Source: Labia minor
Lineage: Eukaryota; Arthropoda; Insecta; Dermaptera; Spongiphoridae
Reading direction: 5' to 3'
Assembly (NCBI GenBank): GCA_963082975.1
Contig: OY720348.1
Location: forward strand, 53,332,421-53,396,420
DNA: 64,000 nucleotides
Shown here in pieces: positions 1,285-54,680 of this stretch (position 1 is the stretch's first letter; the number at the start of each line of letters is the position of its first letter). The notes under the pieces were generated by a model. It made no database searches. It was not told where the DNA came from and was given only the letters and a program-made list of their open reading frames with translations. The translations under genes were made by a program, and so were the position numbers.

Positions 1285-1818
1285 GTTATATATTTTACCT
1301 TACCCACGGGTTTAATGGGTAATTAAACGGTAAAGAAATAAAAGGCAATTTTATTTAAGAAAGAGTAAGAAATTTATTATGAGTTTGAAGATACAAATTC
1401 AATCATACATAGGGACAACTCCCGTCTAGTCTAAAATATCTCTCGTCACTTTACATCTAGTCATACATCTCTAGTTGCTAGTCATGCTTTTTTTCTTTTA
1501 TATCACCGAAATAAGGGAAGGAGAAAGGTAGGGGTGAGGGATGAAATGAAGAGTGGTCTTTCCCAGGCATATGTTGAAATTTCTCCTCAAAAGGGTCACT
1601 GCAACTGCAAACAATAAACCACACTGCCCTCTCCTACAAAGAATATTTCATTTAACAAGTGCACCCTTGCAATTTTCAATTGAATGAGCCTTGCCATGTG
1701 TTTTACCTGCTAAATGCTAAGAACCTTAATTAATGTTCACATGTGGAAGTATGAACGTGACTAACATAACTTACTTATTCTTAATTGTAATGGACACATG
1801 TGGGAACTTGACATTATA
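1285..1818 (-). repeat. LTR, left copy (3' LTR of the minus-strand element)
   Basis: Direct repeat of 4648-5181. It is bounded internally by a pyrimidine-rich tract on the plus strand (polypurine on the element strand), which marks it as the 3' LTR. It contains a G-rich 'agggtaggggtgaggg'-type segment on the plus strand. The exact outer edge is uncertain by one to two bases. Confidence 0.88.
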
Positions 1819-2283: not shown

Positions 2284-3948
2284 TTATATAATAATATTCG
2301 AAAAAAAAATGTATACAATTTTAAATTTAAATTTTGTCCACACCCGTTTTAAATGATATTTCCATTTCATTGATATCTTTCTCCTTATCTTATTAATGTG
2401 TGGAGAAAGTGACGGGGCTATTTGCCATGATCTAATATAATTTACTAACACAATATGATATTTAATTTTACAAACAACTACTAATTGATTTCTATAAAAA
2501 AGCTTGGGACGGGTGCCTTCCTTTGAATGTCTCGAACTAATATTATTCACATTATTTATACTTTGATCAATATTATCAATTTTAATTTCATTTTGAATTA
2601 ATGTTGGGAAATTAGAAACTGTATTAGGGGATGACGGAAAATTATGTTTATTAATTTCGTTATACGTAGATTCATGAGATCGCTTTTTATTTTCTATAAA
2701 TCTTAGATTAATTTCTTCTGGTTTTGAAATTGTTTGGTCAAGATTGATCTTATTTATTTCTATATATTCACGTTCATTTGGAGTTAATAGAGGGGGTGTT
2801 GGAGATGGAGTGTTCTTTGGAGGATAATGATCGAATTCAGGAGTCTTTTTTCTTATAAGTTCTGGACAAGGTAACGTATCACTAGAATTATCTTCACAAG
2901 GAGATAACACAGGTGTATCCGCATCATATGATTGAGCAATTTTCTCAAGAGCATTGAATTGAATAGGTGGGGAGGGTGGAGGTGAAGAATAGAGTGAGAT
3001 TTGAGATTTTTCTGAGAGAGAATTATCCATATTATTGTGTAAGGAATTTTCTTCCAATTCCTTTTTAATTAATTTCTTGGTTTCTGTAATTTGAGGTGGA
3101 TCTTCTAAATTGATTAATTCTGCATGAGGTTTTATACTTTGTTCTTTAGAACATTTATATAAAAATTCTTTATTTGAATTCATTGTTTCATCATTGTTAA
3201 TATTTTTATCATTAATATGTTTAGAGGGCAAAATATTTTCTGATATTCTATTTTTTGGTAATAAATTAGAAGAATGTAATGATTTTAAAATTGATTTTTC
3301 TTGTATTAATTTATTCATTGGTAAAGTTATATCAATTGAAGATAATTTATGATTGTTTATTGTATTTTTTTCATTAATATCACTTGGTTCTTTTTTAACT
3401 TCAATATTATATTCAAAATTTAATTTGTTCTGGTCAAGGAATTGTCCATTATCAATTTTATTTTTCTTATAATTGTTTGAATTTAATATTGTTGATTTAT
3501 TTTCAAAAGAGGCAAATTTTTTAATCATATCTGGTTCATTTAGCCAATCATTAGTTTTTTGTTTTTTATAATCCGCCGAATTGTGGTAGCGGGGAGGGGG
3601 GTGGTAATTTTGATAGTTATTAGAATGAGAGTGATTTCTGGGAATGAATTGTCTATTGTAATTTGAATCGTAGAGATTACTCTCGCTTTTTGTTTCGCGA
3701 AATATGTCCCTAAGATCCCTTCTCAAATTCTCCCAGGTGGTTAGACTTACGTGGGTCAGCATTTCATTGGCACTGCCCTGAATTTTGTCTCTAACGTACC
3801 TGAGGAAAAATTCGTGCTGGTCATAAGGAAATGTACTATATATTTTATCAACCGTATTAATAAATCTTTGGAGTACGTTTGACTCGCCCTTAAAGATAGG
3901 AATACATTGTAACAAATGATCTGTATTCATTTTCATCATTAATTTCAT
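2284..3948 (-). CDS. Gag-like protein of the LTR element, 554 residues
   Basis: The frame is open for 554 codons. Residues about 10-90 have the look of a Ty3/Gypsy Gag core: 'IPIFKGESNVLQRFI', then 'RDKIQGSANEML' and 'TTWENLRRDLRDIF'. This is the usual pattern of a target-chain helix bundle ending in a Trp-Glu-x-Leu motif. The remaining 450 residues are polar and Asn/Lys/Ser-rich, with proline clusters such as SPPPSPP and PSPTPPLLTP and acidic spacers. No zinc knuckle, protease, reverse transcriptase or integrase motif is recognised. It would act as the structural protein of an intracellular particle if expressed. The Ser/Pro-rich tail is unusual for Gag and could come from another source; that is a guess. 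The frame itself looks intact, and the element as a whole is non-autonomous. Confidence 0.75.
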   Translation of the reverse strand: MKLMMKMNTDHLLQCIPIFKGESNVLQRFINTVDKIYSTFPYDQHEFFLRYVRDKIQGSANEMLTHVSLTTWENLRRDLRDIFRETKSESNLYDSNYNRQFIPRNHSHSNNYQNYHPPPRYHNSADYKKQKTNDWLNEPDMIKKFASFENKSTILNSNNYKKNKIDNGQFLDQNKLNFEYNIEVKKEPSDINEKNTINNHKLSSIDITLPMNKLIQEKSILKSLHSSNLLPKNRISENILPSKHINDKNINNDETMNSNKEFLYKCSKEQSIKPHAELINLEDPPQITETKKLIKKELEENSLHNNMDNSLSEKSQISLYSSPPPSPPIQFNALEKIAQSYDADTPVLSPCEDNSSDTLPCPELIRKKTPEFDHYPPKNTPSPTPPLLTPNEREYIEINKINLDQTISKPEEINLRFIENKKRSHESTYNEINKHNFPSSPNTVSNFPTLIQNEIKIDNIDQSINNVNNISSRHSKEGTRPKLFYRNQLVVVCKIKYHIVLVNYIRSWQIAPSLSPHINKIRRKISMKWKYHLKRVWTKFKFKIVYIFFSNIII

Positions 3949-4629
3949 TTTTCAATTACTTTATTTATTGTATTATTTAATTTTATTATTATTATTTTAC
4001 GTTGATTATTATTATTTTATTTCGATTATTTTTTTTATTTTGATTATTATTTTATTTTAATTATTATTATTTTATTATTATTAATTTTAATTCATTTTAT
4101 TATTTTATTTTTTTATTTTAATTAATTTATTTATTTATTTTTCATAAAATTTTATTTATTTTAATTTATGTTAGAAATTTTGTTTAATTGTTAAAATATT
4201 TATTTTAATATTGATTTATATATTTTTTTTTTTATGTTAGAAAATTTATTTAATTGTTAAGGTATTTTATTTTAAAATTTATTTATTATATTTTTATGTT
4301 AAATTTATGGTATGACTGTTTGTATAGCTCACGATTTTTCTTTCTTCTTTCTTGTTGACTGCGCCCTTCGGATAAGTATTATCCTAGTATTTGTAGATGA
4401 CCCGGGATGATTTGCTCGTACCGTTCCTCGTTAAGGCAATGGACGTCGCTTTCCTCGATGTCGTGTAGTCGTGGTAGCTCGTAGGTTTGTAGTGGCTGCT
4501 GCTTCTTGGTTGCTGAAGACGATGTTCAGACTCCGTCGATTGCTCAGGAGATGAAGCAGGAATTTAATCACCGTTCGCGATAAAAACTTTAAAAAGTTGC
4601 CGTTTGTATTGTATAAACGTTCGCGAAAT

Positions 4630-4647: not shown

Positions 4648-5181
4648 ATTATATATTTTACCTTACCCACGGGTTTAATGGGTAATTAAACGGTAAAGAA
4701 ATAAAAGGCAATTTTATTTAAGAAAGAGTAAGAAATTTATTATGAGTTTGAAGATACAAATTCAATCATACATAGGGACAACTCCCGTCTAGTCTAAAAT
4801 ATCTCTCGTCACTTTACATCTAGTCATACATCTCTAGTTGCTAGTCATGCTTTTTTTCTTTTATATCACCGAAATAAGGGAAGGAGAAAGGTAGGGGTGA
4901 GGGATGAAATGAAGAGTGGTCTTTCCCAGGCATATGTTGAAATTTCTCCTCAAAAGGGTCACTGCAACTGCAAACAATAAACCACACTGCCCTCTCCTAC
5001 AAAGAATATTTCATTTAACAAGTGCACCCTTGCAATTTTCAATTGAATGAGCCTTGCCATGTGTTTTACCTGCTAAATGCTAAGAACCTTAATTAATGTT
5101 CACATGTGGAAGTATGAACGTGACTAACATAACTTACTTATTCTTAATTGTAATGGACACATGTGGGAACTTGACATTATA
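4648..5181 (-). repeat. LTR, right copy (5' LTR of the minus-strand element)
   Basis: Direct repeat of 1285-1818, identical as far as I can read. It adjoins the tRNA-Ser-like primer site on its inner side and the AATAG flank on its outer side. Confidence 0.88.
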
Positions 5182-18640: not shown

Positions 18641-18761
18641 AATTGTAATAAATAATTAAAGAATTGTACCTATATCAATATTTTTTAAAGGGTCGAGCGA
18701 GAGGTCGGTGTCCCAGGTATTAATATTATCAGCCAAACCCAATAATAATGAATCATTTTTT

Positions 18762-19352
18762 ACTATCTCGCCAGAGATAGTATTGCGATCACGAAAATTT
18801 TCGATGTTGAGATTTTGATGTTTTTATACGTTTTGAAGGTTCCTGAATTATTTTCACTAAGGTTCAGAAAAATGTCTGTGTGTGTGTGTGTGTGTGTATG
18901 TAGACAAGATTACGCAAAAACGGTTTGAGCTAGAATGATGAAATTTGGTACATGAGCATTATTCAAAATTCCTAGTTTTCTATCAACTTTTGAGAAATGT
19001 AGCTCAACCGGAAGAGGGTCATTACCTACAACGTTTTGATTTTTTTTCCTCTAAAGTGACCGTAAAAATAAAGATATATGTTTGATAATTTTTCACATGA
19101 TTAAAGATTGTATAAAACTGCTATATATAGAATTTCAGCTTGATTGATTCGCTGAAATTACCAGAATTAATTTTTTAACACTGCAATTCTCACGCGCCAA
19201 CATGTGACGTGGTGCCATCAACAAAGCCAAACATGCGCTGGTTTAATATTTATTATTTATAATTTATAATTAATTAAATTTAATTTAAATATAATATATT
19301 ATGTTATTTAATCCAATTCAAATTGCGAGATAGTCGAGTGGAGACACTCCAG
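18762..19352 (+). mobile_element. Family A repeat, copy 3, full length (591 bp)
   Basis: This is a reference copy for the family. It starts ACTATCTCGC and ends GCGAGATAGT plus the hairpin GAGTGGAGACACTC plus CAG, so the first ten bases are repeated inverted just before a terminal hairpin. Inside are a TG microsatellite, 'caaaaacggtttgagctaga', 'gaaatttggtac' and 'acatgtgacgtggtgcc'. The 5' flank ends in TTTT. No open frame. The structure suggests a Helentron-derived non-autonomous element; see findings. Confidence 0.8.
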
Positions 19353-19393
19353 CTAATTTTAACTTAATTCCCCAGCCGAGGCTCGGGGTCCCG

Positions 19394-22027: not shown

Positions 22028-22558
22028 ACCATCTCGCCAGTATTGCGATCACGGAAATTTTTCGATGTCAGGATTTTGATGTTTTTATACGTTTTGACGG
22101 TCCCTGAGTCATTTTCACTAAGGTTGAGAAAAATGTCTGTGTTTGTGTGTATGTAGACAAGATTAGGCAAAAACGGTTTGAACTAGAATCATGAAATTTA
22201 GTACATGGGTTTTATTTAAAATTTGTAGTTTTCTATCAACTTTTGAGAAATGTAGCTCAATCGGAAGTGGGTCATTACCTACCATGTTTTCATTATTTTT
22301 TCCTCTAAACTGACTGTAAAAATAAATATATAAGTTTGATAGTTTTTCACATGATTAAATATTGTATAAAACTGCTATATATAGAATTTCAGCTTGATTA
22401 AATCTCTGAAAGTACTGGAATTATTTTTTTAACACTTCAAATCTCGCGCCAGCACGTGTCGTGGTGCCATCAACAAATTTAATTAAATTTAATTTAAATA
22501 TAATATATGTTATTTAATCCAATGCAATTTGCGAGATAGTCGAGTGGAGACAGCCCAG
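22028..22558 (+). mobile_element. Family A repeat, copy 4
   Basis: It starts ACCATCTCGCC and ends GCGAGATAGTCGAGTGG plus AGACAGCCCAG. It lacks the CACGCGCTGGTTTAAT block and so is about 60 bp shorter than copy 3. Confidence 0.78.
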
Positions 22559-23469: not shown

Positions 23470-23560
23470 TACAAAAATTTTTTACCTGTATGAATTACTA
23501 AATGAAAATTTAAATATGATTAAATTAATTTCAAAATGCTTGTCTCGTGTAAGAATTAAA
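23470..23560 (-). pseudogene. Decayed zinc-finger remnant downstream of the array
   Basis: On the minus strand 'aatttaatca' then 'catttagtaattcatacagg' (H-L-V-I-H-T-G) match the finger repeat unit of the adjacent gene, with a deletion between the two pieces and no continuing frame. This suggests the array once extended further 3' or that a finger was copied out. Confidence 0.5.
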
Positions 23561-23881: not shown

Positions 23882-26800
23882 TTATAAATGTGTTTTAAAA
23901 TTTGATTTCTGATTAAATTTCTTTTCACAATCATTACATTCAAAAGGTTTTTTTCCTCTATGAATTAGTAAATGTTTATCTAAATTTGATTTTTGATTAA
24001 ATTTCTTTTCACAATAATTACATTCAAAAGGTTTTTCTCCTTTATGTATTAGTAAATGTTTATCTAAATTTGATTTTTGATTAAATTTCTTTTCACAATA
24101 ATTACATTCAAAAGGTTTTTCTCCTGTATGAATTAATAAATGTTTTACTAAATTTGATTTCTGATTAAATTTCTTTTCACAATCATTACATTCAAAACGT
24201 TTTTCTTCTGTATGAATTAATAAATGTTTATCTAAATTTGATTTCTGATTAAATTTCTTTTCACAATCATTAAATTCAAAACGTTTTTCTCCTGAATGAA
24301 TTAATAAGTGTTTATCTAAATTTGATTTCACATTAAATTTCTTTTCACAATAATTGCATTCAAAAGGTTTTTTTCCTGAATGAATTAATAAATGTTTATC
24401 TAAACTTGATTTCTGATTAAATTTCTTTTCACAATAATTGCATTCAAAAGGTTTTTCTCCTGAATGAATTAATAAATGTTTATCTAAACTTGATTTCTGA
24501 TTAAATTTCTTTTCACAATCATTACATTCAAAACGTTTTTCTCCTGAATGAATTAACAAGTGTTTATCTAAATTTGATTTCACATTAAATTTCTTTTCAC
24601 AATAATTGCATTCAAAAGGTTTTTCTCCTGAATGAATTAATAAATGTCTAGCTAAATCAGATTTCTGATTAAATTTCTTTTCACAATAATTACATTCAAA
24701 AGGTTTTTCTCCTGTATGAATTAATAAATGTTTTACTAAATTTGATTTCTGATTAAATTTCTTTTCACAATCATTACATTCAAAACGTTTTTCTTCTGTA
24801 TGAATTAATAAATGTTTATCTAAATTTGATTTCTGATTAAATTTCTTTTCACAATCATTACATTCAAAACGTTTTTCTCCTGAATGAATTAATAAGTGTT
24901 TATCTAAATTTGATTTCACATTAAATTTCTTTTCACAATAATTGCATTCAAAAGGTTTTTCTCCTGAATGAATTAATAAATGTTTATCTAAACTTGATTT
25001 CTGATTAAATTTCTTTTCACAATAATTACATTCAAAAGGTTTTTCTCCTGTATGAATTAATAAATGTTTTACTAAATTTGATTTCTGATTAAATTTCTTT
25101 TCACAATCATTACATTCAAAACGTTTTTCTTCTGTATGAATTAATAAATGTTTATCTAAATTTGATTTCTGATTAAATTTCTTTTCACAATCATTAAATT
25201 CAAAACGTTTTTCTCCTGAATGAATTAATAAGTGTTTATCTAAATTTGATTTCACATTAAATTTCTTTTCACAATAATTGCATTCAAAAGGTTTTTTTCC
25301 TGAATGAATTAATAAATGTTTATCTAAACTTGATTTCTGATTAAATTTCTTTTCACAATAATTGCATTCAAAAGGTTTTTCTCCTGAATGAATTAATAAA
25401 TGTTTATCTAAACTTGATTTCTGATTAAATTTCTTTTCACAATCATTACATTCAAAACGTTTTTCTCCTGAATGAATTAATAAGTGTTTATCTAAATTTG
25501 ATTTCACATTAAATTTCTTTTCACAATAATTGCATTCAAAAGGTTTTTCTCCTGAATGAATTAATAAATGTCTAGCTAAATCAGATTTCTGATTAAATTT
25601 CTTTTCACAATAATTACATTCAAAAGGTTTTTCTCCTGTATGAATTAATAAATGTTTTACTAAATTTGATTTCTGATTAAATTTCTTTTCACAATCATTA
25701 CATTCAAAACGTTTTTCTTCTGTATGAATTAATAAATGTTTATCTAAATTTGATTTCTGATTAAATTTCTTTTCACAATCATTACATTCAAAACGTTTTT
25801 CTCCTGAATGAATTAATAAGTGTTTATCTAAATTTGATTTCACATTAAATTTCTTTTCACAATAATTGCATTCAAAAGGTTTTTCTCCTGAATGAATTAA
25901 TAAATGTTTATCTAAACTTGATTTCTGATTAAATTTCTTTTCACAATAATTGCATTCAAAAGGTTTTTCTCCTGTATGAATTAATAAATGTTTTACTAAA
26001 TTTGATTTCTGATTAAATTTCTTTTCACAATCATTACATTCAAAACGTTTTTCTCCTGAATGAATTAATAAGTGTTTATCTAAATTTGATTTCACATTAA
26101 ATTTCTTTTCACAATAATTACATTCAAAAGGTTTTTCTCCTGAATGAATTAATAAATGTCTAGCTAAATCAGATTTCTTATTAAATTTCTTTTCACAATA
26201 ATTACATTCAAAAGGTTTTTCTCCTGAATGAATTAATAAATGTTTATCTAAACTTGATTTCTGATTAAATTTCTTTTGACAATAATTACATTCATAAGGT
26301 TTTTCTTCTGTATGAATTAATAAATGTTTATCTAAACTTGATTTCTGATTAAATTTCTTTTCACAATAATTACATTCAAAAGGTTTTTCTCCTGTATGAA
26401 TTAATAAATGTTTTACTAAATTTGATTTCTGATTAAATTTCTTTTCACAATCATTACATTCAAAACGTTTTTCTTCTGTATGAATTAATAAATGTTTATC
26501 TAAATTTGATTTCTGATTAAATTTCTTTTCACAATCATTAAATTCAAAACGTTTTTCTCCTGAATGAATTAATAAGTGTTTATCTAAATTTGATTTCACA
26601 TTAAATTTCTTTTCACAATAATTGCATTCAAAAGGTTTTTTTCCTGAATGAATTAATAAATGTTTATCTAAACTTGATTTCTGATTAAATTTCTTTTCAC
26701 AATAATTGCATTCAAAAGGTTTTTCTCCTGAATGAATTAATAAATGTCTAGCTAAATCAGATTTCTTATTAAATTTCTTTTCACAATCATTACATTCAAA

Positions 26801-28759
26801 ACGTTTTTCTCCTGAATGAATTAATAAGTGTTTATCTAAATTTGATTTCACATTAAATTTCTTTTCACAATAATTGCATTCAAAAGGTTTTTCTCCTGAA
26901 TGAATTAATAAATGTCTAGCTAAATCAGATTTCTGATTAAATTTCTTTTCACAATAATTACATTCAAAAGGTTTTTCTCCTGTATGAATTAATAAATGTT
27001 TTACTAAATTTGATTTCTGATTAAATTTCTTTTCACAATCATTACATTCAAAACGTTTTTCTTCTGTATGAATTAATAAATGTTTATCTAAATTTGATTT
27101 CTGATTAAATTTCTTTTCACAATCATTACATTCAAAACGTTTTTCTCCTGAATGAATTAATAAGTGTTTATCTAAATTTGATTTCACATTAAATTTCTTT
27201 TCACAATAATTGCATTCAAAAGGTTTTTCTCCTGAATGAATTAATAAATGTTTATCTAAACTTGATTTCTGATTAAATTTCTTTTCACAATAATTGCATT
27301 CAAAAGGTTTTTCTCCTGTATGAATTAATAAATGTTTTACTAAATTTGATTTCTGATTAAATTTCTTTTCACAATCATTACATTCAAAACGTTTTTCTCC
27401 TGAATGAATTAATAAGTGTTTATCTAAATTTGATTTCACATTAAATTTCTTTTCACAATAATTACATTCAAAAGGTTTTTCTCCTGAATGAATTAATAAA
27501 TGTCTAGCTAAATCAGATTTCTTATTAAATTTCTTTTCACAATAATTACATTCAAAAGGTTTTTCTCCTGAATGAATTAATAAATGTTTATCTAAACTTG
27601 ATTTCTGATTAAATTTCTTTTGACAATAATTACATTCATAAGGTTTTTCTTCTGTATGAATTAATAAATGTTTATCTAAATTTGATTTCTGATTAAATTT
27701 CTTTTCACAATAAGTACATTCAAAAGGTTTTTCTTCTGTATGAATTAATAAATGTGTTTTTAAATTTGATTTATCATTAAATTTCTTTTTACAATAATTA
27801 CATTCAAAAGGTTTTTCTCCTGAATGAATTAATAAATGTTTATTTAAAGTTGATTTCTGATTAAATTTCTTTTTACAATAATTACATTGAAAACGCCTGT
27901 CTTCAGTATGGTTTGAATCAGTTTCTTCTTTAAATTTTTCGTCTAAATATTTCTCTGTATCCTTTTTGAGTTTTAACTCATTTTTGAAAATAGAAAATAT
28001 TTTTTGATGAAAACATTTTTTTAGATGTTTACATAAAAATTCCTCACTTATAAAATTCGTATGGCAATATACACAAGAATATAGAGGACCTAAAAAAGAA
28101 TTGTTTTCGTTATTTTAATTTATTATAATTTTATATATTAAGTATATATAAAGTATTAAATAATTAAATTTAAGGAATAAGATTACTACAAATAATATTA
28201 AAAAAAATAATTTTAGTGACATTAACATTACTTTCGATGAAAAAATCAGAAATAAAAATTTAATTTTAGCTATAAAAAATATTTTCTTTTTATTCAAATA
28301 ATATTTAATCCCATATTAAATAATATTTAATTCTGTTTAAAATAATATTTTTTATATTTATAGAATATTTTTTATTTTTTATATTTATAAAATAATTTTT
28401 TTTTATTTATAAAATAAGTTTTTTTATTTTATATAATATTTAATTTAATTATTATTAAATAAATATTTAATTTTTTCACAAATTAATTTAAATTTTACCT
28501 ACTTCACAGATATATATGCAAATTTTAATAGTTTTTACTTCGTATTCTAGGAGTGTCCCGCAAAAATTTCATAAGAAAAGTTTATTAGAATAAAAAAAGG
28601 AATTCACTGGTAAAGTTTTATTCAAATCCATTTTGAAGTAACTTTTTTGTATAATTATCATTTTAGGGACAATTAATTACTTTTGATGAAAAAAAGATTG
28701 AAATAAAAATTACCTATATATATTGGATATTTTGTGTCTTCTTCTGAATAAAGATCCAT
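23882..28759 (-). CDS. C2H2 zinc-finger protein with 48 tandem fingers, two exons
   Basis: Exon 1 (28714-28759) encodes 'MDLYSEEDTKYPIYI' and the first base of a Gly codon. The intron of 624 nt (28090-28713) has GTAATT and TTCTTTTTTAG ends. Exon 2 (23882-28089) completes the Gly and runs open to a TAA, giving 1417 residues. The ATG lies in AAAATGG. Residues 17-80 hold a degenerate finger-like segment (CVYC, then H-x3-C) and a charged linker. From residue 81 come 48 C2H2 units spaced 28 residues apart, consensus C-x2-C-x3-F-x5-L-x2-H-x3-H with TGEKP/SGEKP/TEEKR linkers. The last unit stops after 'FKTHL', before its second His. Helix residues vary little: -1 is Q, V or K (D once); +3 is N, S, D or T; +6 is K or R (T once). 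This is a predicted nuclear DNA-binding protein. The target is unknown. Translating exon 2 from an internal codon alone would miss the first six fingers. Confidence 0.88.
24044..25891 (-). repeat. Two tandem 11-finger (924 bp) blocks in the array
   Basis: Fingers 25-35 (25891-24968) and 36-46 (24967-24044) have the same order of linker and helix types, including the SGKKP linker and the Cys-to-Phe finger, differing in finger 35 versus 46 (SSLDK versus SNLDK). This is a recent segmental duplication within the exon. Confidence 0.85.
24968..27655 (-). repeat. Two tandem 16-finger (1344 bp) blocks in the array
   Basis: Fingers 4-19 (27655-26312) and 20-35 (26311-24968) match finger for finger. 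The diagnostic TEEKPYECNYCQ finger begins both blocks. The one clear difference is finger 14 (KKSDLAR) versus finger 30 (QKSSLDK). Confidence 0.85.
28504..28650 (-). repeat. Foldback element arm inside the zinc-finger intron
   Basis: 'atatgcaaattttaatagtttttac', 'cataagaaaagttta' and 'actggtaaagtttt.ttcaaat' match the right arm of the foldback element at 54876-55430. Only one arm is present. Confidence 0.55.
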
Positions 28760-29387
28760 TTTAAATTGATTAACCTATTATCAATTATAAAATATATACT
28801 AGCTAATAAGTAATATAAACGTTTTTAACACAGGTTTTCACTTTTGATTTTGATTTGCAATGAAAATAACAACCAAATATTCGTCTTAAGATAGTAACGA
28901 TAGTCTGTGGCAACGATTCAATTTCAAAATAAAACTTTTGGTGCATTATTTAAACCACAAACCATATATCAGACTTGACACGACCATGTTAACTTTTGAA
29001 TCCTTATTTAGTGCCTTCTGGCTATATTAAGAATAACTAATTGACGAAAAAGCGGGTGGGGGGCTTTGTTTTTTTTTTTTTATAAATTTATTTTCATTTA
29101 GAAGGAATTATTGGAATGAAAATTTTTTTGGAATTTTAACTTAAGTGAAAAATGATTTATTTAGAGGTAAAACTGATATTTCACCAATAAATTTTTATTT
29201 TTTCATATTATTGCTGAAAGGTTGGTTTTATCTCCAAATAAATAATTTTTCATTTAACTGAAAATTCCACAATTTTTAAATTGAAGTTAGGAAATTTACA
29301 CATCTAGATAAAAAGAGTTATGTTCTTTGTAATATATTTATTTATAAAGTAGGATAAAAATTACAATAAATTATTAACAAATCTGTC
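28760..29387. other. Region upstream of the zinc-finger gene
   Basis: This should contain the promoter and 5' UTR. On the gene strand 'gactatcgttactatc' and AT-rich sequence precede the ATG, but no TATA box, initiator or upstream exon can be picked out with confidence. Confidence 0.35.
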
Positions 29388-29665
29388 ACTATCTCACATG
29401 ATTAAAAATTGTATAAAACTGCTATATATAGAATTTCAGCTTGATTGAATCTCTGAAAGTACAGGAATTAATTTTTTAACATGACTGCAAATCACGCGCC
29501 AACACGTGACGTGGTGCCTTCAACAAAGATTCAAACACGCGCTGTTTTAATAAATATTATTTCTTAATTTTTATTTATAATTTAATTAATTAAATTTAAT
29601 TTAAATATAATATATGTTATTTAATGCAATTCAAATTGTGAGATGGTCGAGTGGAGACATTCCAG
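29388..29665 (+). mobile_element. Family A repeat, copy 5, internally deleted
   Basis: It starts ACTATCTC and jumps directly to 'acatgattaaaaattgtata', losing about 320 bp including the TG tract, then runs to the normal 3' end (CATTCCAG). Both termini are retained, as expected of a MITE-like deletion derivative or of recombination at short homology. Confidence 0.75.
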
Positions 29666-29898
29666 CTTATTTTATTAAATAAAATAATTCAACTTAAAGT
29701 AAATAAAAGAATTGTAACATTTTTTTTCATTCTGTTATCTTTACCTAAAGAGATAAATATTTTTATTACAATCCTTGAATAAAGTGATATATATGCTTAC
29801 TGCTAGGTGAACCTCTTTTTTACCTCTCTATTAGAGTCTTTAAGTATTTAATTATAAATTTTCATCATAAAACTGTTTTATACTATACTTCATTTTTT

Positions 29899-30556: not shown

Positions 30557-31117
30557 CTTTTATTTTGACATCAAAAATCAAATATATATATTTATATATA
30601 TTCTGTTATTTTAGAATTATTATTATTATTATTATTATTAAGAGAAATAGCAGAAATGTTGATATATATAAGCATGATGTAGGAAATGAAGTGAATTTCC
30701 AGAAAGGTTTATCTATAAGAGGAAAAGAATTTCGGGTATTCATAACGGATGAAGTGAACTGCATGTCACCTAAACAGGTGCTCACCGACATGAGAATATG
30801 AACGTGTCCATGAAACGTCCTCTCCAAACAGTTGGTACGCACAACTTTCTGTCAAATTCAAGTCCCCTCTCCATTTGCGTAACATTTAGAAAATAAATTT
30901 TGAAAAAAAAATCTGAAAAGGGGGTAGGGAATCATCCAACTACCCTCTTCACTCTAATCCTTCCCCCACTCCTCCCACCTTTCTCTCTCCCATAGAAAAC
31001 ATTCTAACATATTAAAATGATAGTTATTATTATTATTTTTTTACCTTTATGACATCCAACAAAATATAAATTGTTAAAAAAAATTCTAAATTAATTTTTT
31101 CCTTATATATATATATA
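30557..31117. other. Short open frames, nothing recognised
   Basis: A 78-codon plus-strand frame (30565-30801) ends 'KEFRVFITDEVNCMSPKQVL'. It contains an ATT/ATA microsatellite and no known domain; an equally long antisense frame exists. A C-rich patch lies at 30930-31000. Coding status is undecided. Confidence 0.35.
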
Positions 31118-33681
31118 CTAGCTGCTCAGAGCGCCTTCGGCGCTCTTCACACCTAGACGGGGGCTCCGCCCCCTGTACCCCCGAGTTGTACATAGTATTT
31201 GGTGGTTGAAAGTATTAAAAGGTTTTCATCCATTTTGTTTCAATCAGTATATTACATAAAACATTCATTTCTTTTTGTGTTCTTTTTTAAAAAATATATT
31301 TTAATTTAATCACTATATTAATTATATATATTATTATTGTATATGTTATATCTATCTACCTATGTGGCTCAAAGATACTCGAAAGTTCTTAGCCGCAACA
31401 ACCACATTTCTCCAAGTGTCCCTATCCTGAGCCCTTATTCCATCTCTCTTACGTCCCTTCCTACGCGTCATTGGTTTTCCAAGCGGACGTTTTCCAATCG
31501 GTCTTCCCACCAATATCTTTTTCCTCTCCCATTCTTGCCACGTGCCCTGCCTAACGCAGCTTTTTCCCTTTTATAACCCTAACTATTTCTGAAGATGCAG
31601 AGAGGCCATGCAACTTCTTGTTATACAGTCTCCCTCATACCCGGTGACCTCATCTTCCTTTGGCCAATAAATGCAGGGAAGAATCCTATTCTCAAATACT
31701 CTGAATCTACTCTCATCTCCAAGGGTCATAGACCATGCCTCCCACCCATATAATGCAACAGGCAAAATAATCTTTTTATATATTCCCTTTGATAATAATT
31801 TTGAAGAGATAAGCCTCTTTATTGCAGATAACAGGCGTTTCCCGATTGCAACCCCGATTTAAATTCTTCTCAAATATTATTATCCTTCGTGATTACATTC
31901 AATTTTTCTACATATTCAAATTCTACATTTTGTATCTTAAGATTTTGTATGTTAATACTCTTCCTCTTTGTTACTAAATATTTTTTCTTATCACTATTAA
32001 TTTCAAACCTCCATTAAATTTTCCTCGCTATCTGTAATTGCAATTGCCGAATCTCCTATTATATTTAAGTCGTCTGAGTAACCTAATATTTTACAATTGA
32101 TTTCCGCATCTTATTCTTTCTTTACTACCTTCAAGAGAAATTTGAAGATTGAAAATTTGAAAAAGTTTATCCGGATCTATTGAGTTATGCGTATGTTTTA
32201 CTAAAGTCTACAAATAATTAGTGAACAGAAATATTGAATTCGCGGTTTTGTTCCTAATATCTGTCATAATGAAAATATCTTAATTAATGTTGGTCGATTT
32301 GGCCTGAACCCGCAATGATATCTCCTAATATTTCCTCCGCCTATAGTTTATAAGTATTGTATATGTTATAATAGAGTATAATATTTCTTGATCATTACAT
32401 TTTGGTATTTTATTTTCATTGCTAGATTATTATTGAATATTTTTAATTATAATGAAACTTGAGAAAATGCAAAAATAGAGACTTGAGACAATTTATAAAA
32501 ATTAACGGTATAAAACTATAGATAAATTACCAATATATACATTCATTAATAGTATTAATTTAAATTAATTGATTTATTTGTTTTTTTTATTATTAAGTTC
32601 ATTTATTAATTTTTTTAGATAATAGTTATTTTCCTTAAAAGAAACTTAAATTCTGTGGTGCTAGGGGATTTGAAAATTATTGGTCGCAATATGAAGATTT
32701 CGCTTACAGTTTCTGTCATGTCCGACCTCCATCCAACAGTTATTTTCTGTTAAGTTTTTTGCTTCTCTTAATCATGTGATCTATATATTTAATTTTTTTT
32801 GATTCATTATAATAAAATTTAAACAAATAAAAATTTTTACTTTGTTAATTTATATAAATTTCAATATAAACTGATTGTGAGTGATACGCTTAGCCAATAC
32901 TCTGAATATTTTGTGTACAAAAATATTGAATGTTCTTATCGAGATTTGATATAATGTTGTACGATTTGTCCTAAATCTGAATTAGAAGAAAATTATAAAT
33001 TGCCTCCTCTTCCAGCCCAATTCATTTACCCACCCATGTTGCATATGGCATCTAAATTTCTTAAAACTCCGTTTTTTTAATTTAAAATAGAAGGAGAGAA
33101 AGAGTTTTAAATTATATTCGAATAGTCTATATTTTCTATATATCAGTATTTTTTTCTGAATTTAATAGCAAGTTGATTTTAAAAATTTTCCATTCTTAAT
33201 GCATATGATTGATTACATGTGTTAAAATTTAAAAAAATTCAAATATTCTAATTTTTATATTTATATATACAATTTAATATTATTTTTTATTAATATCATA
33301 TCAAAAAAAGAGAATTTATTAAAAATTAAAAATAAAAAAAGAAGCCTATTAATAAAAAATTGAATGGTGATTTAAATATTTTATTAAATTAATTAAAATG
33401 AGACCTTTTAGAATAAATTATTTAATTGAAATGATATTTAAATATAAGAATTTAAAAAAATATTATATTCTTTGTTTGGCAATTGTTATTTAATTATGTG
33501 CAACATGATTCGACTTGCACAGAGCATCGTTATTTTTTATTAATATCACATAATAAAAATGAATCTTTTAAACATAATAAATAAAAAAGACATTTTAATA
33601 AATTTAAAAAATATACCCAATTTAAAAATGTCAAAAATTTAAAACAACTTTATATCATCATATTTTAATTTTTATATAATA
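31118..33681 (-). mobile_element. Tandem repeat unit D1 with LINE tail and hairpin-CTAG end
   Basis: First of two head-to-tail copies. On the minus strand it ends with the hairpin AGAGCGCCGAAGGCGCTCT, then GAGCAG and CTAGT, followed by TA repeats. A second short palindrome, GGGGGCGGAGCCCCC, lies just before it. A terminal hairpin followed by CTAG with T next is the classical 3' end of a Helitron; LINE 3' ends with a hairpin and microsatellite tail are the alternative. Minus-strand sequence at about 31350-32345 is decayed LINE ORF2. No Rep/helicase is present. Confidence 0.7.
31350..32345 (-). pseudogene. LINE reverse transcriptase C-terminal relic in D1
   Basis: In shifting minus-strand frames one reads 'CGFRPN'-like text, 'SIDPDKLFQIF', 'ILGYSDDLNIIGDSA' (the catalytic YxDD box), 'ALYGWEAWSMTLGDESRFRV', 'FENRILPCIYWPKEDEVTGY', and finally 'GRPIGKRPLGKPMTR' with 'AQDRDTWRNVVV'. 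These are the fingers/palm and the conserved tail of an arthropod-type non-LTR retrotransposon. Stops and frameshifts are numerous, so it is dead. Confidence 0.8.
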
Positions 33682-35853
33682 CTAGCTGCTCAGAGCGCCT
33701 TCGGCGCTCTTCACACCTAGACGGGGGCTCCGCCCCCTGTACCCCCGAGTTGTACATAGTATTTGGTGGTTGAAAGTATTAAAAGGTTTTCATCCATTTT
33801 GTTTCAATCAGTATATTACATAAAACATTCATTTCTTTTTGTGTTCTTATTTAAAAAATATATTTTAATTTAATCACTATATTAATTATATATATTATTA
33901 TTGTATATGTTATATCTATCTACCTATGTGGCTCAAAGATACTCTAAAGTTCTTAGCCGCAACAACCACATTTCTCCAAGTGTCCCTATCCTGAGCCCTT
34001 ATTCCATCTCTCTTACGTCCCTTCCTACGCGTCATTGGTTTTCCAAGCGGACGTTTTCCAATCGGTCTTCCCATCAATATCTTTTTCCTCTCCCATTCTT
34101 GCCACGTGCCCTGCCTATCGCAGCTTTTTCCCTTTTATAACCCTAACTATTTCTGAAGATGCAGAGAGGCCATGCAATTTCTTGTTATACAGTCTCCCTC
34201 ATACCCGGTGACCTCATCTTTCTTTGGCCAATAAATGCAGGGAAGAATCCTATTCTCAAATACTCTGAATCTACTCTCATCTCCAAGGGTCATAGACCAT
34301 GCCTCCCACCCATATAATGCAACAGGCAAAATAATCTTTTTATATATTCCCTTTGATAATAATTTTGAAGAGATAAGCCTCTTTATTGCAGATAACAGGC
34401 GTTTCCCGATTGCAACCCCGATTTAAATTCTTCTCAAATATTATTATCCTTCGTGATTACATTCAATTTTTCTACATATTCAAATTCTACATTTTGTATC
34501 TTAAGATTTTGTATGCTAATACTCTTCCTCTTTGTTACTAAATATTTTTTCTTATCACTATTAATTTCAAACCTCCATTAAATTTTCCTCGCTATCTGTA
34601 ATTGCAATTGCCGAATCTCCTATTATATTTAAGTCGTCTGAGTAACCTAATATTTTACAATTGATTTCCGCATCTTATTCTTTCTTTACTACCTTCAAGA
34701 GAAATTTGAAGATTGAAAATTTGAAAAAGTTTATCCGGATCTATTGAGTTATGCGTATGTTTTACTAAAGTCTACAAATAATTAGTGAACAGAAATATTG
34801 AATTCGCGGTTTTGTTCCTAATATCTGTCATAATGAAAATATCTTAATTAATGTTGATCGATTTGGCCTGAACCCGCAATGATATCTCCTAATATTTCCT
34901 CCGCCTATAGTTTATAAGTATTGTATATGTTATAATAGAGTATAATATTTCTTGATCATTACATTTTGGTATTTTATTTTCATTGCTAGATTATTATTGA
35001 ATATTTTTAATTATAATGAAACTTGAGAAAATGCAAAAATAGAGACTTGAGACAATTTATAAAAATTAACGGTATAAAACTATAGATAAATTATCAATAT
35101 ATACATTCATTAATAGTATTAATTTAAATTAATTGATTTATTTGTTTTTTTATTATTAAGTTCATTTATTAATTTTTTTAGATCATAGTTATTTTCCTTA
35201 AAAGAACTTAAATTCTGTGGTCCTAGGGGATTTGAAAATTATTCGTCGCAATATGAAGATTTCGCTTACAGTTTCTGTCATGTCCGACCTCCATCCAACA
35301 GTTATTTTCTGTCAAGTTTTTTGCTTCTCTTAATCATGTGATCTATATATTTAATTTTTTTTGATTCATTATAATAAAATTTAAACAAATAAAAATTTTT
35401 ACTTTGTTAATTTATATAAATTTCAATACAAACTGATTGTGAGTGATACGCTTAGCCAATACTCTGAATATTTTGTGTACAAAAATATTGAATGTTCTTA
35501 GCGAGATTTGATATAATGTTGTACGATTTGTCCTAAATCTGAATTAGAAGAAAATTATAAATTGCATTAAAATGAGACCTTTTAGAATAAATTATTTAAT
35601 TGAAATGATATTTAAATATAAGAATTTAAAAAAATATTATATTCTTTGTTTGGCAATTGTTATTTAATTATGTGCAACATGATTCGACTTGCACAGAGCA
35701 TCGTTATTTTTTATTAATATCACATAATAAAAATGAATCTTTTAAACATAATAAATAAAAAAGACATTTTAATAAATTTAAAAATATACCCAATTTAAAA
35801 ATGTCAAAAATTTAAAACAACTTTATATCATCATATTTTAATTTTTATATAAT
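33682..35853 (-). mobile_element. Tandem repeat unit D2
   Basis: It begins exactly where D1 ends and repeats it closely (offset 2564 bp over the first 1.9 kb). It lacks about 390 bp corresponding to 33003-33394 of D1, joined at 'aaattgc'/'attaaaatgag'. Both units end 'catcatattttaatttttat'. Confidence 0.8.
33914..34909 (-). pseudogene. LINE reverse transcriptase relic in D2
   Basis: Same content as 31350-32345 with a handful of substitutions (for example Lys for Glu in 'WPKKDEVTGY'). The shared lesions show that decay preceded the tandem duplication. Confidence 0.8.
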
Positions 35854-41802: not shown

Positions 41803-43272
41803 CCGTTTGAGTGCTAAGCGGCGCAAAAGTGATTCGATAGTTTCAATTGAAAATTGCGCCGCAGCGCAAAACTGACGCGCGCAACAGTGTATTTTTGGCG
41901 CTTCATTGTTGTTGATATATTATAATCCCGCGCATAATTTGTTACGAGAGTTCATATTTATACATTTAAAAACAATTTTTTACAGTTTTTATATATTATT
42001 TAGCAAAAATGGCCATGTCACTTGCTATTACTTCGGACGATGATTCGATCTCTAATGATTATACGGACAGTGAAACAACGTATATAAGCAGTAATAATAG
42101 CAGTGTTATAATGCATCAAAAAAAAAAGATTGAGAATTGAAAGTGAGTCTTCTATTTCATCATCATCTTCAGAAATAGACGAAACACTAACTTTTGCCAA
42201 TATTCAAGAATATACAAGATTTAGTAGAAAAATATGGTCTTGGATTTGCAGTAGTGCAAAAATTGCTTTCACTTGGAAATTATCTGAACAAAGGCTATCA
42301 TGTGTTTACAGACAACTTTTACACAAGTTTACGCCTAGCCAAAGAACTTTTGAAACAGAATACATACCTAACTGGAACAATAAGACGCAATCGAAAAGGG
42401 ATTCCTCCAGAAGCTAAGAAAGCAACCGTAGGAGAAGCCAAATACCTAGCACATGAAGATGTTTTGATGTGTTCTTTCAAAGACAAGAAGTCCAAACCAA
42501 ATCCTGTCATATTGATTTCAACCAATGCAGATACTAAGAATGTGACAATCAAGAAAAAGAAAGGGAATTTTGAATACGAAAAGGTGAAACCAAGTATGAT
42601 TGATGACTATAACAAATACATGGGAGGTGTGGACAGTCAGAGAAAATGTTATACGTGTATTTGGACGAGCGAAGAACCCTAAAATATTGGAAGAAAGTAG
42701 TTTTCAATATATTTGGAAGAATGGTGTTGAACTCTTATATTTTGTATGAATCCAACACTACTCGAAAAAAAAAATTGCCCGGCTACAATTTACATCGAAA
42801 ATTATCGATGATATCGAAATGGAGTGGATGAACTATAAAAATGGCGAGTCGACACAACCATCTTCATCAACCAAAAAATTTGCTCTGGAAAAATTACCGG
42901 GACGTAACTTGCGCCAGTGCACAGTATGTAGCAAAAAAGGGAGTGTAAAACGATCTCGACTTATTTGCGCCCGGTGTAGGAAAGGCCTACATGCTGTTTG
43001 TGCGGCAAAGCATTCTTGTTGAGATATATTTTTTTATAATTTTCATCTCAAAACAGAAAAAAAAGTAAAAAGTACATAATATTTTATGTTTATTTTTTAT
43101 ATAAGTATCACAAAACATTTGTACATTATATTAAAAAAAGAATTATAGTAATTGATTTATATTTGTCTGAATTAGAGTGTTTTATTTGACACCATATTTT
43201 TCCTTTAAAATAATCAAAAAATGTATAGCAATTTTCATATAGATTCACAAAAATTGCTTAGCACTAAAACGG
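41803..43272 (+). mobile_element. piggyBac element, internally deleted, TTAA-flanked
   Basis: Starts CCGTTTGAGTGCTAAGC and ends, on the other strand, CCGTTTTAGTGCTAAGC; TTAA lies on both sides (41799-41802, 43273-43276), the piggyBac signature. The subterminal region (41818-41885) has repeated 'ggcgcaaaa'/'gcgcc' palindromes. At 1470 bp it is well under the usual 2.4 kb and carries a broken transposase. Confidence 0.92.
42009..43022 (+). pseudogene. piggyBac transposase pseudogene
   Basis: The N-terminus is an acidic 'MAMSLAITSDDDSISNDYTD' region that stops after about 43 codons. The body resumes in another frame (42194-42682) with 'YLNKGYHVFTDNFYTSLRLA', which contains the second catalytic Asp, and 'YNKYMGGVDSQRK', which contains the third. 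The region for the first Asp is missing. A frameshift leads to 'YLDERRTLKYWKKVVFNI', and the C-terminus (42819-43022) is a Cys-rich zinc-binding tail with 'CTVCSKKGS' and 'CARCRKG'. At least three disruptions are visible, so it cannot be active. Confidence 0.88.
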
Positions 43273-50155: not shown

Positions 50156-50187
50156 CTTAGATTTAAATGAAATTTATTTATAATAAG

Positions 50188-50769
50188 CTGGAGTGTCTCC
50201 ACTCGACTATCTCTCAATTTGAATTGGATTAATTAACATATATTATATTTAAATTAAATTTAATTAATTAAATTATAAATTAAAATTAAAAAATAATATT
50301 TATTAAAACAGCGTGTTTGACTCTTTGTTGATGCCACCACGTCACGTGCTGGCGCGTGATTTGCAGTCGTGTTAAAAAATTAATTCCGGTACTTTCAGCG
50401 ATTTAATCAAGCTGAAATTCTATATATAGTAGTTTTATACAATTTTTAATCATGTGAAAAATTATCAAACATCTATCTTTATTTTTACAGTTAGTTTAGA
50501 GGAAAAAAAATCAAAATGTGGTAGGTAATGACCCTCTTCCGGATGAGCTACATTTCTCAAAAGTTAATAGAAAACTACGAATTTTGAATAATGCCCGTGA
50601 ACCAAATTTCATTATTCTAGTTCAAACCGTTTTTGCGTAATCTTGTCTACATACACACATACACACATACATTTTTCTCAACCTTACAGTTAGTGAAAAT
50701 GACTCAGGGACCTTCAAAACGTATAAAAACATCAAAATCTTGAAATCGAAAATTTTTTGGTGAGATAGT
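50188..50769 (-). mobile_element. Family A repeat, minus-strand copy, near full length
   Basis: It runs from 'actatctcacc' (right) to 'gagagatagtcgagtggaga' and CACTCCAG (left). The 5' end has lost part of the 'agagatagtattgcgatcac' segment. The rest, including 'acgcgccagcacgtgacgtg', is intact. Confidence 0.78.
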
Positions 50770-52870: not shown

Positions 52871-53362
52871 TGGTACACACTCTTTCAAGAATATTATTCA
52901 GTTCAGGTCTCTTTAGTTTTAGGAATAGGAAAAAATTGAGGGAGCCAAATCTGATGAATACGGTGGTTGAGGCATGATTACGGTGTTGTTTTAGGCCAAA
53001 AAATTATGAACAAGCAATGATGTGTGAGCTTGTGCATTTTCCAGGATTTGTTTTTCCACAATTCCGATCGTTTGAGCCGTATTTCTTCACGCAAACGTTG
53101 CATAACTTTCTTGTAGTATTCCTTATTAACGGTACGACCTGTTGGCAAGAACTCATAATGCATCACGCCATTGTAATCGAAGAAGATAGTGAGCAAACCT
53201 TCACATTTGATAGAACTTGGCATTCTTTTAAAGCGCTTGTACCATAAATATTTTTTTTGAGACCAAGTAGACTCGCTGAATGTCACAGTCAACATTTTAA
53301 GTGCGTTGGAGCACTTTTTTCCATTTTTAACGCAAAATTTATTACGGATTCTTTGGTCCATT
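52871..53362 (-). pseudogene. Mariner transposase pseudogene
   Basis: On the minus strand the N-terminus 'MDQRIRNKFCVKNGKKCSNA' and 'FSESTWSQKKYLWYKRFKR' is the mariner DNA-binding domain. It jumps to 'LLTIFFDYNGVMHYEFLPTG' (first catalytic Asp, in FFDY) and 'EYYKKVMQRLREEIRLKRSE'. The second-Asp 'HHDNAPAH' block is degraded to 'MHKLTHHCLF'. Beyond a frameshift, 'VIMPQPPYSSDLAPS' keeps the third-Asp block. An internal segment of about 50-100 residues is missing. No terminal repeats were found; a family A scrap abuts at 53376. Confidence 0.85.
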
Positions 53363-53375
53363 TTTTTAAGTAAAA

Positions 53376-53429
53376 AAATCTCAACATCGAAAATTTTCGT
53401 GATCGCAATACTATCTCTTACTAGATAGT
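53376..53429 (-). repeat. Family A 5' end fragment
   Basis: Minus strand: 'actatctagtaagagatagt' then 'attgcgatcacgaaaatttt'; only the first ~54 bases are present, directly upstream of the mariner pseudogene. Confidence 0.65.
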
Positions 53430-54680
53430 AAAAATCGAAGAACACACAAAAACGTGACTAACTTCAGTTATCTAAAACAAACTACTAATCCAAAATGGCT
53501 GATAATGTCAACATATGAGAAACATATGTGTGCCAACATAAAAAAAAAAATTCAATAATCGAATGTATACACCCCGCGAAAATTCAAAATTCACCTTCTT
53601 ACCCGTTCCCCTGCGCCATAAGCAAACTTTCATAGTGATCTGTTAAATGGTTTCAAAATGTATTAATCTAGAAAATATACTATCAATTAATTTATTTATA
53701 TTAACATTTTTTTTGAAATTACAAATTTATTATAAAAAAAAAATTATTATAAATCTTATCATAGAAGAAAGAAAAATTCATATTATAATTCTTCTTCTGA
53801 AATTTTTACTTTCTTTTCTTTCTTTCTATATATACTTGTTTAGTTATCATGTTGTTTCTGCTTGTTGGATTCAATGGAAACGAGGGAACAACTCTTGATT
53901 CCATTGATAAAAGCCATTTGCGTCCAGAGCCCCCGGGTTAAAATTGCATTTCTTTTTCCAACTCAAGTGAATTTTCATACGAAGGGCTCATGTAGAGATG
54001 AGGGACTTAGGAGGGTGAATGCAGGAGGAGGAGATGGAGGGGTGGGGGGAAGTTGAAGAAAGAGTGCTTGTCTGCCCACCTGCCATTGCCATGGCATAGA
54101 CACCCGACCCTTTTGGCCCCGCTGTCTTCATTTTCATAGAGTCATGCACTCAGCGAAAAACGAACAAATCTCACTGAATATTTGCACAAACGCTTTTGAA
54201 AATATAAGCATCGCCCTATGGAAAAGGATAAAGGGCTTTTCACTTAAAACGAAAACGAACAAACAGCAACCTGTCCCTTGCTTGAGTTGTTTCCACGCTA
54301 AGAAAGATAATTATTCTTAAAATGATTCATATGAACCATTCTATCTATTCTCCATCTTTTTCACTGAGATAAATTATATATATATATATATATATTTAAA
54401 TCCCCTCTCCAAACAAACACACAAACACAGACTATAATTTAAATGATCCCATGTGGGTTGTAGAAAACAGAAAATATGAGACGAGAGTAGAAGAGGGAAG
54501 GAGATAAAACTCTTTTTAAAAAAACATTATATATATATATATAAATTGTAATGGTATTTTTATAATATGGGACCATAATTGGTACGCGCTCTTTTGGATA
54601 CAGAAAGTTAGTTCGAAGAGTGACATAAAAAGCAACATATTTTTCATTTTTTTCTTTGATATAATTTTAATTAAAATTAT
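53430..54680. other. Less AT-rich region without recognised genes
   Basis: 53860-54300 is among the GC-richest parts of the window, with 'gaggaggagatggaggggtg' and short overlapping frames (up to 83 codons) that have no domain. Nothing identifies it as an exon; a UTR or promoter region is possible. Confidence 0.4.

What the first reader, a model, noticed from the sequence alone, without database searches (positions are those of the whole stretch)
23882..28759. 48-finger C2H2 gene built by nested duplications of 16 and 11 fingers
Classing each finger by linker and helix shows fingers 4-19 repeated as 20-35, and 25-35 repeated again as 36-46. A 28-residue unit is thus organised in a 1344-bp and a 924-bp higher-order repeat, like satellite DNA, while the reading frame stays open for 1.4 kb codons. 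Very few helix types are used, so the protein may read a long repetitive DNA, perhaps one of the repeats around it. Arrays of this length and homogeneity in one exon are unusual.
Basis: partly seen in the sequence, partly recalled or inferred. Interest (0 to 1): 0.78.

Follow-up and report, generated by a model that had tools for sequence, protein, structure and literature searches.

The report
Recombining 47-finger zinc-finger gene array
An arthropod gene for a DNA-binding protein has grown to 47 near-identical zinc fingers because its coding sequence recombines like a minisatellite, and it is the longest member found of a family with hundreds of copies in its genome.

Summary
A two-exon gene (minus strand, 28759-23882) encodes 47 complete C2H2 fingers in a strict 84-bp step plus a 48th cut off by the stop. 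Fingers 4-19 recur as 20-35 (8 of 1344 nt differ). The second block is really 24-34 recurring as 35-45 (2 synonymous differences in 924). Junction fingers 19 and 35 are single-switch chimeras. Two unequal crossovers inside aligned fingers, acting on a 20-finger array, reproduce all 47 fingers with 7 mismatches in 3948 nt; six of the 7 are one gene-conversion patch in a recognition helix.

The gene belongs to a lineage-specific poly-zinc-finger family with a conserved short exon 1 and an N-terminal module without a Pfam match; a DNA pattern of that module has 680 genome matches. Two sister genes share 99.6-99.7% of 1118 bp next to the array but carry 19 and 22 fingers in other orders. Over 22 genes, variation concentrates at DNA-contact residues.

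That it reads a neighbouring repeat is not supported: the predicted site fits window and genome no better than controls. Most likely it is a fast-turnover DNA-binding repressor, an extreme member of a known kind (compare hemipteran ZF271/APEZ, KRAB-ZFP, PRDM9 arrays).

The parts
28714..28759 (-). Exon 1 coding part, MDLYSEEDTKYPIYI + first base of Gly
   Evidence: Read from sequence; an MDLYS exon with GT donor seen by a simple motif in 13 of 20 fetched loci; 433 genome hits of its pattern, 0 of the reversed control
28090..28713 (-). Intron, GT...AG
   Evidence: Splice sites read; length varies among members (exon-1 ATG 195-975 bp upstream of the exon-2 stop-to-stop frame)
28760..28900 (-). 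Conserved upstream/5' leader region of about 140 bp
   Evidence: Identity to 13 other copies 0.62-0.87 per 20-nt bin within 140 bp of the ATG, 0.37-0.64 further out
23882..28089 (-). Exon 2: N-terminal module plus whole finger array and stop
27893..28089 (-). Family-specific N-terminal module with a degenerate CX2C...HX3C/HX5H finger; no Pfam match
   Evidence: 680 genome matches to a DNA pattern from it, control 0; pN/pS 0.41 over 22 genes
23945..27892 (-). 47 complete C2H2 fingers, 84-bp step
   Evidence: TRF period 84, 47.8 copies
23882..23944 (-). 48th finger, truncated at the stop codon (lacks second His)
26297..27640 (-). 16-finger block, copy 1 (fingers 4-19)
24953..26296 (-). 16-finger block, copy 2 (fingers 20-35)
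26381..27304 (-). 11-finger unit, copy 1 (fingers 8-18)
25037..25960 (-). 11-finger unit, copy 2 (fingers 24-34)
24113..25036 (-). 11-finger unit, copy 3 (fingers 35-45)
26969..27556 (-). Older 7-finger unit, copy 1 (fingers 5-11); copy 2 is 12-18 at 26381-26968
   Evidence: shift-7 row: 1,1,7,1,0,1,0 differences
26297..26380 (-). Finger 19, crossover chimera (5' like finger 35, 3' like finger 3)
   Evidence: 4 of 4 informative sites fit one switch between nt 44 and 70
24953..25036 (-). Finger 35, crossover chimera (5' like finger 46, 3' like finger 24)
   Evidence: 7 of 7 informative sites, only 1 on the 5' side
26717..26800 (-). Finger 14: helix QKSSLDK replaced by KKSDLAR, read as gene conversion
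   Evidence: 7 of 7 informative sites: 1 parental, 6 from finger 5/21; the other form is kept in fingers 30, 41 and in L010 finger 12
26465..26548 (-). Finger 17: first zinc-binding Cys is Phe; the defect recurs in fingers 33 (25121-25204) and 44 (24197-24280)

Best explanation
This is a functional-looking gene of a very large, lineage-specific poly-C2H2 zinc-finger family. A member has a short first exon, a conserved N-terminal module and one exon holding a tandem finger array. The 84-bp fingers are so alike that the array behaves as a coding minisatellite. After an older 7-finger duplication, unequal homologous crossing over between in-register fingers took a 20-finger array to 31 (+11) and then 47 (+16), and gene conversion swapped one recognition helix (read from sequence; the order of the two steps rests on one site). 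The finger framework and N-terminal module are kept while DNA-contact residues diversify (shown as a pattern, with caveats). The protein most likely binds DNA through a few fingers at a time and represses mobile elements, with the N-terminal module as effector part (inferred). The 47-finger length is probably a recent and perhaps unstable or polymorphic product of this process, not an adaptation to one long repetitive target (inferred).
For: Intact frame, splice sites and 47 in-register fingers. Block identities of 99.4-99.8%. Chimeric junction fingers and a conversion patch. Two crossovers on a 20-finger array reproduce the 47 fingers with 7 mismatches in 3948 nt, 6 of them in finger 14. Sisters L009 and L010 match at 99.64% and 99.73% over the 1118 bp next to the array (module, intron, exon 1, leader) but have 19 and 22 complete fingers in other orders, many letter-identical to fingers here. 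680 module and 433 exon-1 pattern matches, controls 0. Over 274 distinct fingers of 22 genes pN/pS is 1.74 at positions -1, 3 and 6, 3.85 at 5 and 0.42 in the core; the N-terminal module has 0.41.
Against: No expression, binding or population data. pN/pS on fingers that recombine is not a formal test; PMC3890296 (passages) says tree-based tests cannot be applied to such repeats. The linker also has pN/pS above 1 (1.23), so the excess is not confined to DNA contacts. Three of 47 fingers lost a zinc ligand and the last is truncated, which also fits relaxed constraint. No N-terminal effector domain is recognised and the unaligned fold was useless (pLDDT 33.5). The mobile-element target is inferred only from analogy and the repeat-rich surroundings.
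Confidence: 0.72

Rival explanations
1. The long array was selected to read one long repetitive DNA (satellite or local repeat).
For: Helices are few and repeat in order; the recalled recognition code predicts a repetitive GAA/GTA/GCA/GAN-type site, and for three of six sub-arrays (35-45, 4-19, all 47) the best window score exceeded all 10 Markov shuffles.
Against: Best window scores are matched or beaten when finger order is shuffled: 162 of 200 (fingers 35-45), 109 of 200 (4-19), 46 of 200 (all 47), 129 of 200 (1-6), so the excess is local G-richness. Genome-wide, 18 hits of the 33-bp site at up to 3 mismatches, all resembling trinucleotide runs, against 74 for the reversed control. Three of 47 fingers are broken.
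Confidence: 0.08
2. The array length is an assembly artefact (allelic copies joined or a repeat mis-expanded).
For: Blocks are 99.4-99.8% identical, so short reads could not resolve them; no reads were available.
Against: 604 Mb in 71 contigs suggests long reads; a 4-kb array fits in one such read. Junction fingers are chimeras rather than butt joints, and copies differ at a few sites.
Confidence: 0.1
3. A decaying or neutrally drifting copy: a recent duplicate whose array grew by recombination without function.
For: Three fingers lack a zinc ligand, the last finger is truncated, and a weak finger-like remnant lies downstream of the stop at 23478-23519.
Against: Frame open for 1410 codons; core pN/pS is 0.17 among its own 20 distinct fingers; splice sites, leader and N-terminal module are kept.
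Confidence: 0.2
4. The family spreads as cargo of a transposable element rather than by gene duplication.
For: Copies lie on at least seven contigs; similarity upstream often stops about 140 bp before the ATG.
Against: Introns are kept; many copies form tandem clusters, e.g. C10:14.65-14.70 Mb and C2:17.0-17.4 Mb; similarity ends at different points in different copies. Target-site duplications were not sought.
Confidence: 0.1

Closest known systems
ZF271-like / APEZ zinc-finger subfamily of milkweed bug and pea aphid (PMC6444547, passages read)
   Same: Lineage-specific, recent expansion of tandem C2H2 proteins in arthropods; clusters; array shuffling; 3-45 repeats per protein reported for more than 115 Oncopeltus proteins
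   Different: Those are reported to have no domain besides the fingers; here a conserved exon 1 and N-terminal module recur hundreds of times. 47 complete fingers slightly exceeds the reported 45. Orthology could not be tested.
KRAB zinc-finger proteins of tetrapods
   Same: Large clustered family with N-terminal module and one array exon (recalled); positive selection and array expansion in poly-ZF genes (Emerson and Thomas, PMC2604467, passages)
   Different: No KRAB domain found; fingers within one array appear more alike than is usual there (recall)
PRDM9
   Same: 84-bp coding-minisatellite array evolving by repeat gain, loss and conversion, variation at -1, 3 and 6, first repeat lacking an essential Cys (PMC3890296, passages)
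   Different: No PR/SET domain found here; hundreds of paralogues; 7-17 repeats genotyped in that mouse study (apart from one 2-repeat allele) against 47
ZAD zinc-finger proteins of insects (e.g. Kipferl, PMC9531945, search listing only)
   Same: Expanded arthropod C2H2 family with an N-terminal zinc-coordinating module (recalled)
   Different: N-terminal module here has no Pfam match, ZAD included

Membership tests
Poly-C2H2 (Krueppel-type) zinc-finger proteins | CX2CX12HX3H fingers joined by a TGEKP-like 5-residue linker | tested here: met
   47 fingers by motif, of which 3 have the first Cys changed to Phe; linkers SGEKP 14, SGEKR 11, TGEKP 8, TEEKR 6, TEEKP 3, SGKKP 3, KGEKP 1, RGKKP 1; PF00096 48 stretches
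KRAB zinc-finger proteins | N-terminal KRAB domain | tested here: not met
   0 Pfam families at E 0.1 for the 81-aa N-terminal part
ZAD zinc-finger proteins | N-terminal ZAD (zf-AD) domain | tested here: not met
   0 Pfam families at E 0.1 for the N-terminal part
PRDM9 | PR/SET methyltransferase domain | tested here: not met
   None among the 25 shown of 27 families for the exon-2 frame, nor in the N-terminal part
ZF271-like / APEZ | Many tandem fingers with pentapeptide linker and no other domain | tested here: inconclusive
   Fingers and linker fit, but a conserved N-terminal module is present; no aphid or bug sequence was compared
ZF271-like / APEZ | Common descent with hemipteran members | not testable with these tools
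   No eukaryote sequence collection is offered
The local family (exon 1 + N-terminal module + array) | Exon 1 MDLYS... and FLGPLY...CVYCH...KHLKKCFH module before the array | tested here: met

The most novel reading that the evidence does not exclude
The genome keeps a shared, recombining library of finger cassettes: hundreds of genes (680 module matches) with a new, KRAB-like N-terminal effector module trade letter-identical 84-bp fingers and single recognition helices, within genes and between genes more than a megabase apart, so that DNA-binding specificities are re-dealt faster than the flanks mutate, an immune-repertoire-like system aimed at mobile DNA. The 47-finger gene is a product of it caught two crossovers away from a 20-finger state.
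Probability: 0.25. Interest if true: 0.75.

Novelty: new variant of a known kind. Interest (0 to 1): 0.45.

Why it matters
It gives a clear sequence record of how zinc-finger arrays grow: crossover points fall inside aligned fingers, two steps suffice to go from 20 to 47 fingers, and a conversion tract replaces a whole recognition helix at once. The family, with 680 matches to the DNA pattern of an N-terminal module of unknown fold, would be comparable in scale to the roughly 700 human poly-zinc-finger genes cited in PMC2604467 (abstract in listing), though how many copies are intact is not known. It would allow tests of whether arms races with mobile elements drive such expansions where KRAB/KAP1 is missing (PMC6444547, passages, reports that insects lack a direct KAP-1 orthologue).

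Tried and rejected
Target search: the predicted recognition site (recalled contact code, hand-set weights) was scanned in the window and genome and rejected as no better than controls. Against 10 Markov shuffles three of six sub-arrays looked positive (35-45: 19.8 against a maximum of 17.3; 4-19: 22.1 against 18.5; all 47: 11.9 against -18.4) and three did not (1-6, 5-11, 36-40); GNN runs were also longer than in shuffles (30 and 24 nt against at most 18). The finger-order and column shuffles (200 each, four sub-arrays) show this to be local G-richness.

Structure: one unaligned AlphaFold job on the first 158 residues of the exon-2 frame gave pLDDT 33.5; not used. Solved-structure search (60 shown of 175) listed known C2H2 proteins such as ZNF568, Aart, CTCF and PRDM9. 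Rfam: 0 matches in the window.

Organism: the TTAGG telomere pattern had 1 genome match, not informative. PF01395 search uninformative because its controls rang nowhere. COX1 on contig C14 has trnM, nd2, trnW, trnC, trnY, cox1, trnL(taa), cox2, trnK and trnD in that order (nd2 and cox2 named by eye from the translation); a trnL between cox1 and cox2 is, from recall, a pancrustacean mark. Searching papers by assembly size found none. An isopod is a guess from two opposite cox1 copies on C14 (recall), not a result.

The order 16 then 11 fits one mismatch worse than 11 then 16.

Print: the titles and abstracts listed (capped lists, open-licence library only) show none that describes this family; this is no proof of absence. 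The pea aphid paper PMC7475028 (passages) names zinc-finger duplicates only in passing.
Full report
What is there. On the minus strand a two-exon gene runs from ATG 28759 to the stop at 23882. Exon 1 (46 nt) encodes MDLYSEEDTKYPIYI and ends at a GT donor; exon 2 begins after an AG at 28091-28090. The exon-2 frame is open for 1410 codons, giving a predicted protein of 1417 residues. It starts with a module of about 66 residues and then has 47 complete C2H2 fingers in a constant 84-bp step; a 48th finger is cut by the stop. Tandem Repeats Finder sees the same array as period 84, 47.8 copies. An AATAAA lies about 95 bp past the stop.

How the array is built. Of 47 fingers, 20 are distinct at DNA level. 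The order of types is ABC DEFGHIJGKILMING O DEFGHIJGKIPMING Q IJGKRPMING ST. Fingers 4-19 and 20-35 differ at 8 of 1344 nt; the 14 fingers outside 14/30 and 19/35 are identical. Fingers 24-34 and 35-45 differ at 2 of 924 nt, both synonymous. An older 7-finger duplication, 5-11/12-18, shows as 1,1,7,1,0,1,0 differences. Finger 19 matches finger 35 at its 5' informative sites and finger 3 at its 3' ones (4 of 4 with one switch). Finger 35 matches finger 46 at one 5' site and finger 24 at six 3' sites; the 5' side of the second case rests on that single site. These are the marks of unequal homologous crossing over inside aligned fingers.

A test of this reading. I took fingers 1-3, one 15-finger block (20-34) and fingers 46-47 as a 20-finger earlier state. 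Crossing its finger 19 with its finger 8, and then the new finger 19 with finger 3, gives 47 fingers that differ from the observed ones at 7 of 3948 nt: six in finger 14 and one in finger 40. The reverse order leaves 8 mismatches, so the 11-finger step probably came first, on the strength of one site. A 20-finger start also lies within the 19-22 fingers of the two sisters. The block choice matters: with fingers 4-18 as the block the two orders leave 13 and 14 mismatches.

Gene conversion. Finger 14 differs from its copy, finger 30, at six sites that all match finger 5/21. Sister gene L010 has a finger letter-identical to 30 and 41, so finger 14 is the derived one, and a conversion changed QKSSLDK into KKSDLAR. 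A Cys-to-Phe loss in finger 17 recurs in 33 and 44.

The family. The N-terminal module precedes arrays in all 20 fetched loci, which were chosen from finger hits; an MDLYS exon 1 was seen upstream by a simple motif in 13 of these 20. A DNA pattern for the module has 680 genome matches (362 + 318) at up to 2 mismatches, with 0 for the reversed control. An exon-1 pattern has 433 (224 + 209) at up to 1 mismatch, again with 0 for the control. A protein search scored 150 of 1335 first-look candidates; all 150 matched, 122 of them on C10 by my hand count, a figure biased towards close relatives of the query. Their open frames have median 444 aa, and only two reach 800: this gene (1410) and L011 (969), about 55 kb away. 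A second module variant scored 150 of 1337 candidates; again only this gene passed 1000, next 778. Six of the 150 frames are 150 aa or shorter, so not all copies are intact genes.

Turnover. L009 and L010 (1.4 Mb away on C10) match this gene at 99.64% and 99.73% over 1118 bp next to the array, covering module, intron, exon 1 and leader; L010 also matches at 97.8% over 1659 bp beyond the array's end. Yet they carry 19 and 22 complete fingers by the motif (20 and 23 by that), in other orders, many letter-identical to fingers here. L011 also carries identical fingers. In 21 other genes the longest block duplication at 99% or more is 7 fingers (L024), otherwise 4 or fewer, none in three; here it is 17.

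Selection pattern. From the 20 loci plus the window, two cut frames and one duplicate were dropped, and array pieces without the module were not taken, leaving 22 genes with 404 fingers, 274 of them distinct. Residue variety is largest at helix positions -1, 3, 5 and 6; residues 5, 7, 24, 25 and 28 of the unit also vary. pN/pS is 1.74 for -1, 3, 6; 3.85 for 5; 0.69 for 2; 1.23 in the linker; 0.42 in the rest. For this gene alone the first and last values are 1.65 and 0.17. The N-terminal module has mean pS 0.155 and pN 0.064 over 231 pairs. Recombination among fingers breaks the assumptions of a formal test; PMC3890296 (passages) says the same of PRDM9.

Target. With a recalled contact code the array predicts mainly GAA, GTA, GCA and GAN triplets. 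In the window, some sub-arrays beat Markov shuffles, but shuffling finger order gave equal or better scores in 162, 109, 46 and 129 of 200 trials for four sub-arrays. In the genome, a 33-bp site had 18 hits, all resembling GAA/GTA trinucleotide runs, against 74 for its control. The simple code and hand-set weights are weak, and that tool says it may skip simple repeats, so this counts against the local-repeat idea but does not settle the target.

Host. The genome has 604 Mb in 71 contigs. Mitochondrial gene order on C14 fits a pancrustacean, by recall. This makes the ZF271/APEZ expansions of Hemiptera (PMC6444547, passages) the nearest reported parallel I found: more than 115 Oncopeltus proteins with 3-45 repeats and no other domain. 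A 47-finger array is thus at the edge of what is reported, not beyond it in kind.

Judgement. Shown: the array, its block structure, crossover and conversion marks, pattern counts for the family and the residue pattern. Inferred: DNA binding, repression, mobile-element targets, instability of the length. The N-terminal module has no Pfam match and its fold is unknown. I file the gene as an extreme member of a new poly-zinc-finger family, a variant of a known kind.

Noticed in passing
window 23478-23519 (-): A weak finger-like remnant (14 residues, E 0.071) downstream of the stop, suggesting the array or a neighbour once extended further.
   Followed up: partly
window 31108-33003 and 33673-35565: 1.9-kb direct duplication at 99% identity about 2.6 kb apart; parts match L022, L018 and L021, so it is a dispersed repeat.
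   Followed up: partly
window 1286-1818 and 4649-5181: 533-bp direct repeat, 100% identical.
   Followed up: no
window 42191-42679 (+) and 52981-53457 (-): Transposase fragments: PF13843 (DDE_Tnp_1_7, piggyBac-like by recall) and PF01359 (Transposase_1, mariner-like by recall).
   Followed up: partly
window 2287-3951 (-): 555-aa open frame with no Pfam match above cut-off; nature unknown.
   Followed up: partly
window 29394-29683, 50173-50756, 18757-19369, 22039-22477 and others: A dispersed repeat of a few hundred bp found many times in the window and in several fetched loci.
   Followed up: partly
G000:C14 17173-18513 (+) and 25478-26494 (-) (L032, L033): Two opposite cox1 copies on one contig; 29 further COX1-like fragments on other contigs look like nuclear mitochondrial insertions.
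   Followed up: partly
L009 6994-7023: Sister gene whose array ends in an unrelated tail (DIFITCPNSR), perhaps cut by an insertion.
   Followed up: no
upstream of family genes, about -140 from ATG: Similarity between many copies stops near this point; promoter edge or an insertion boundary, unresolved.
   Followed up: partly
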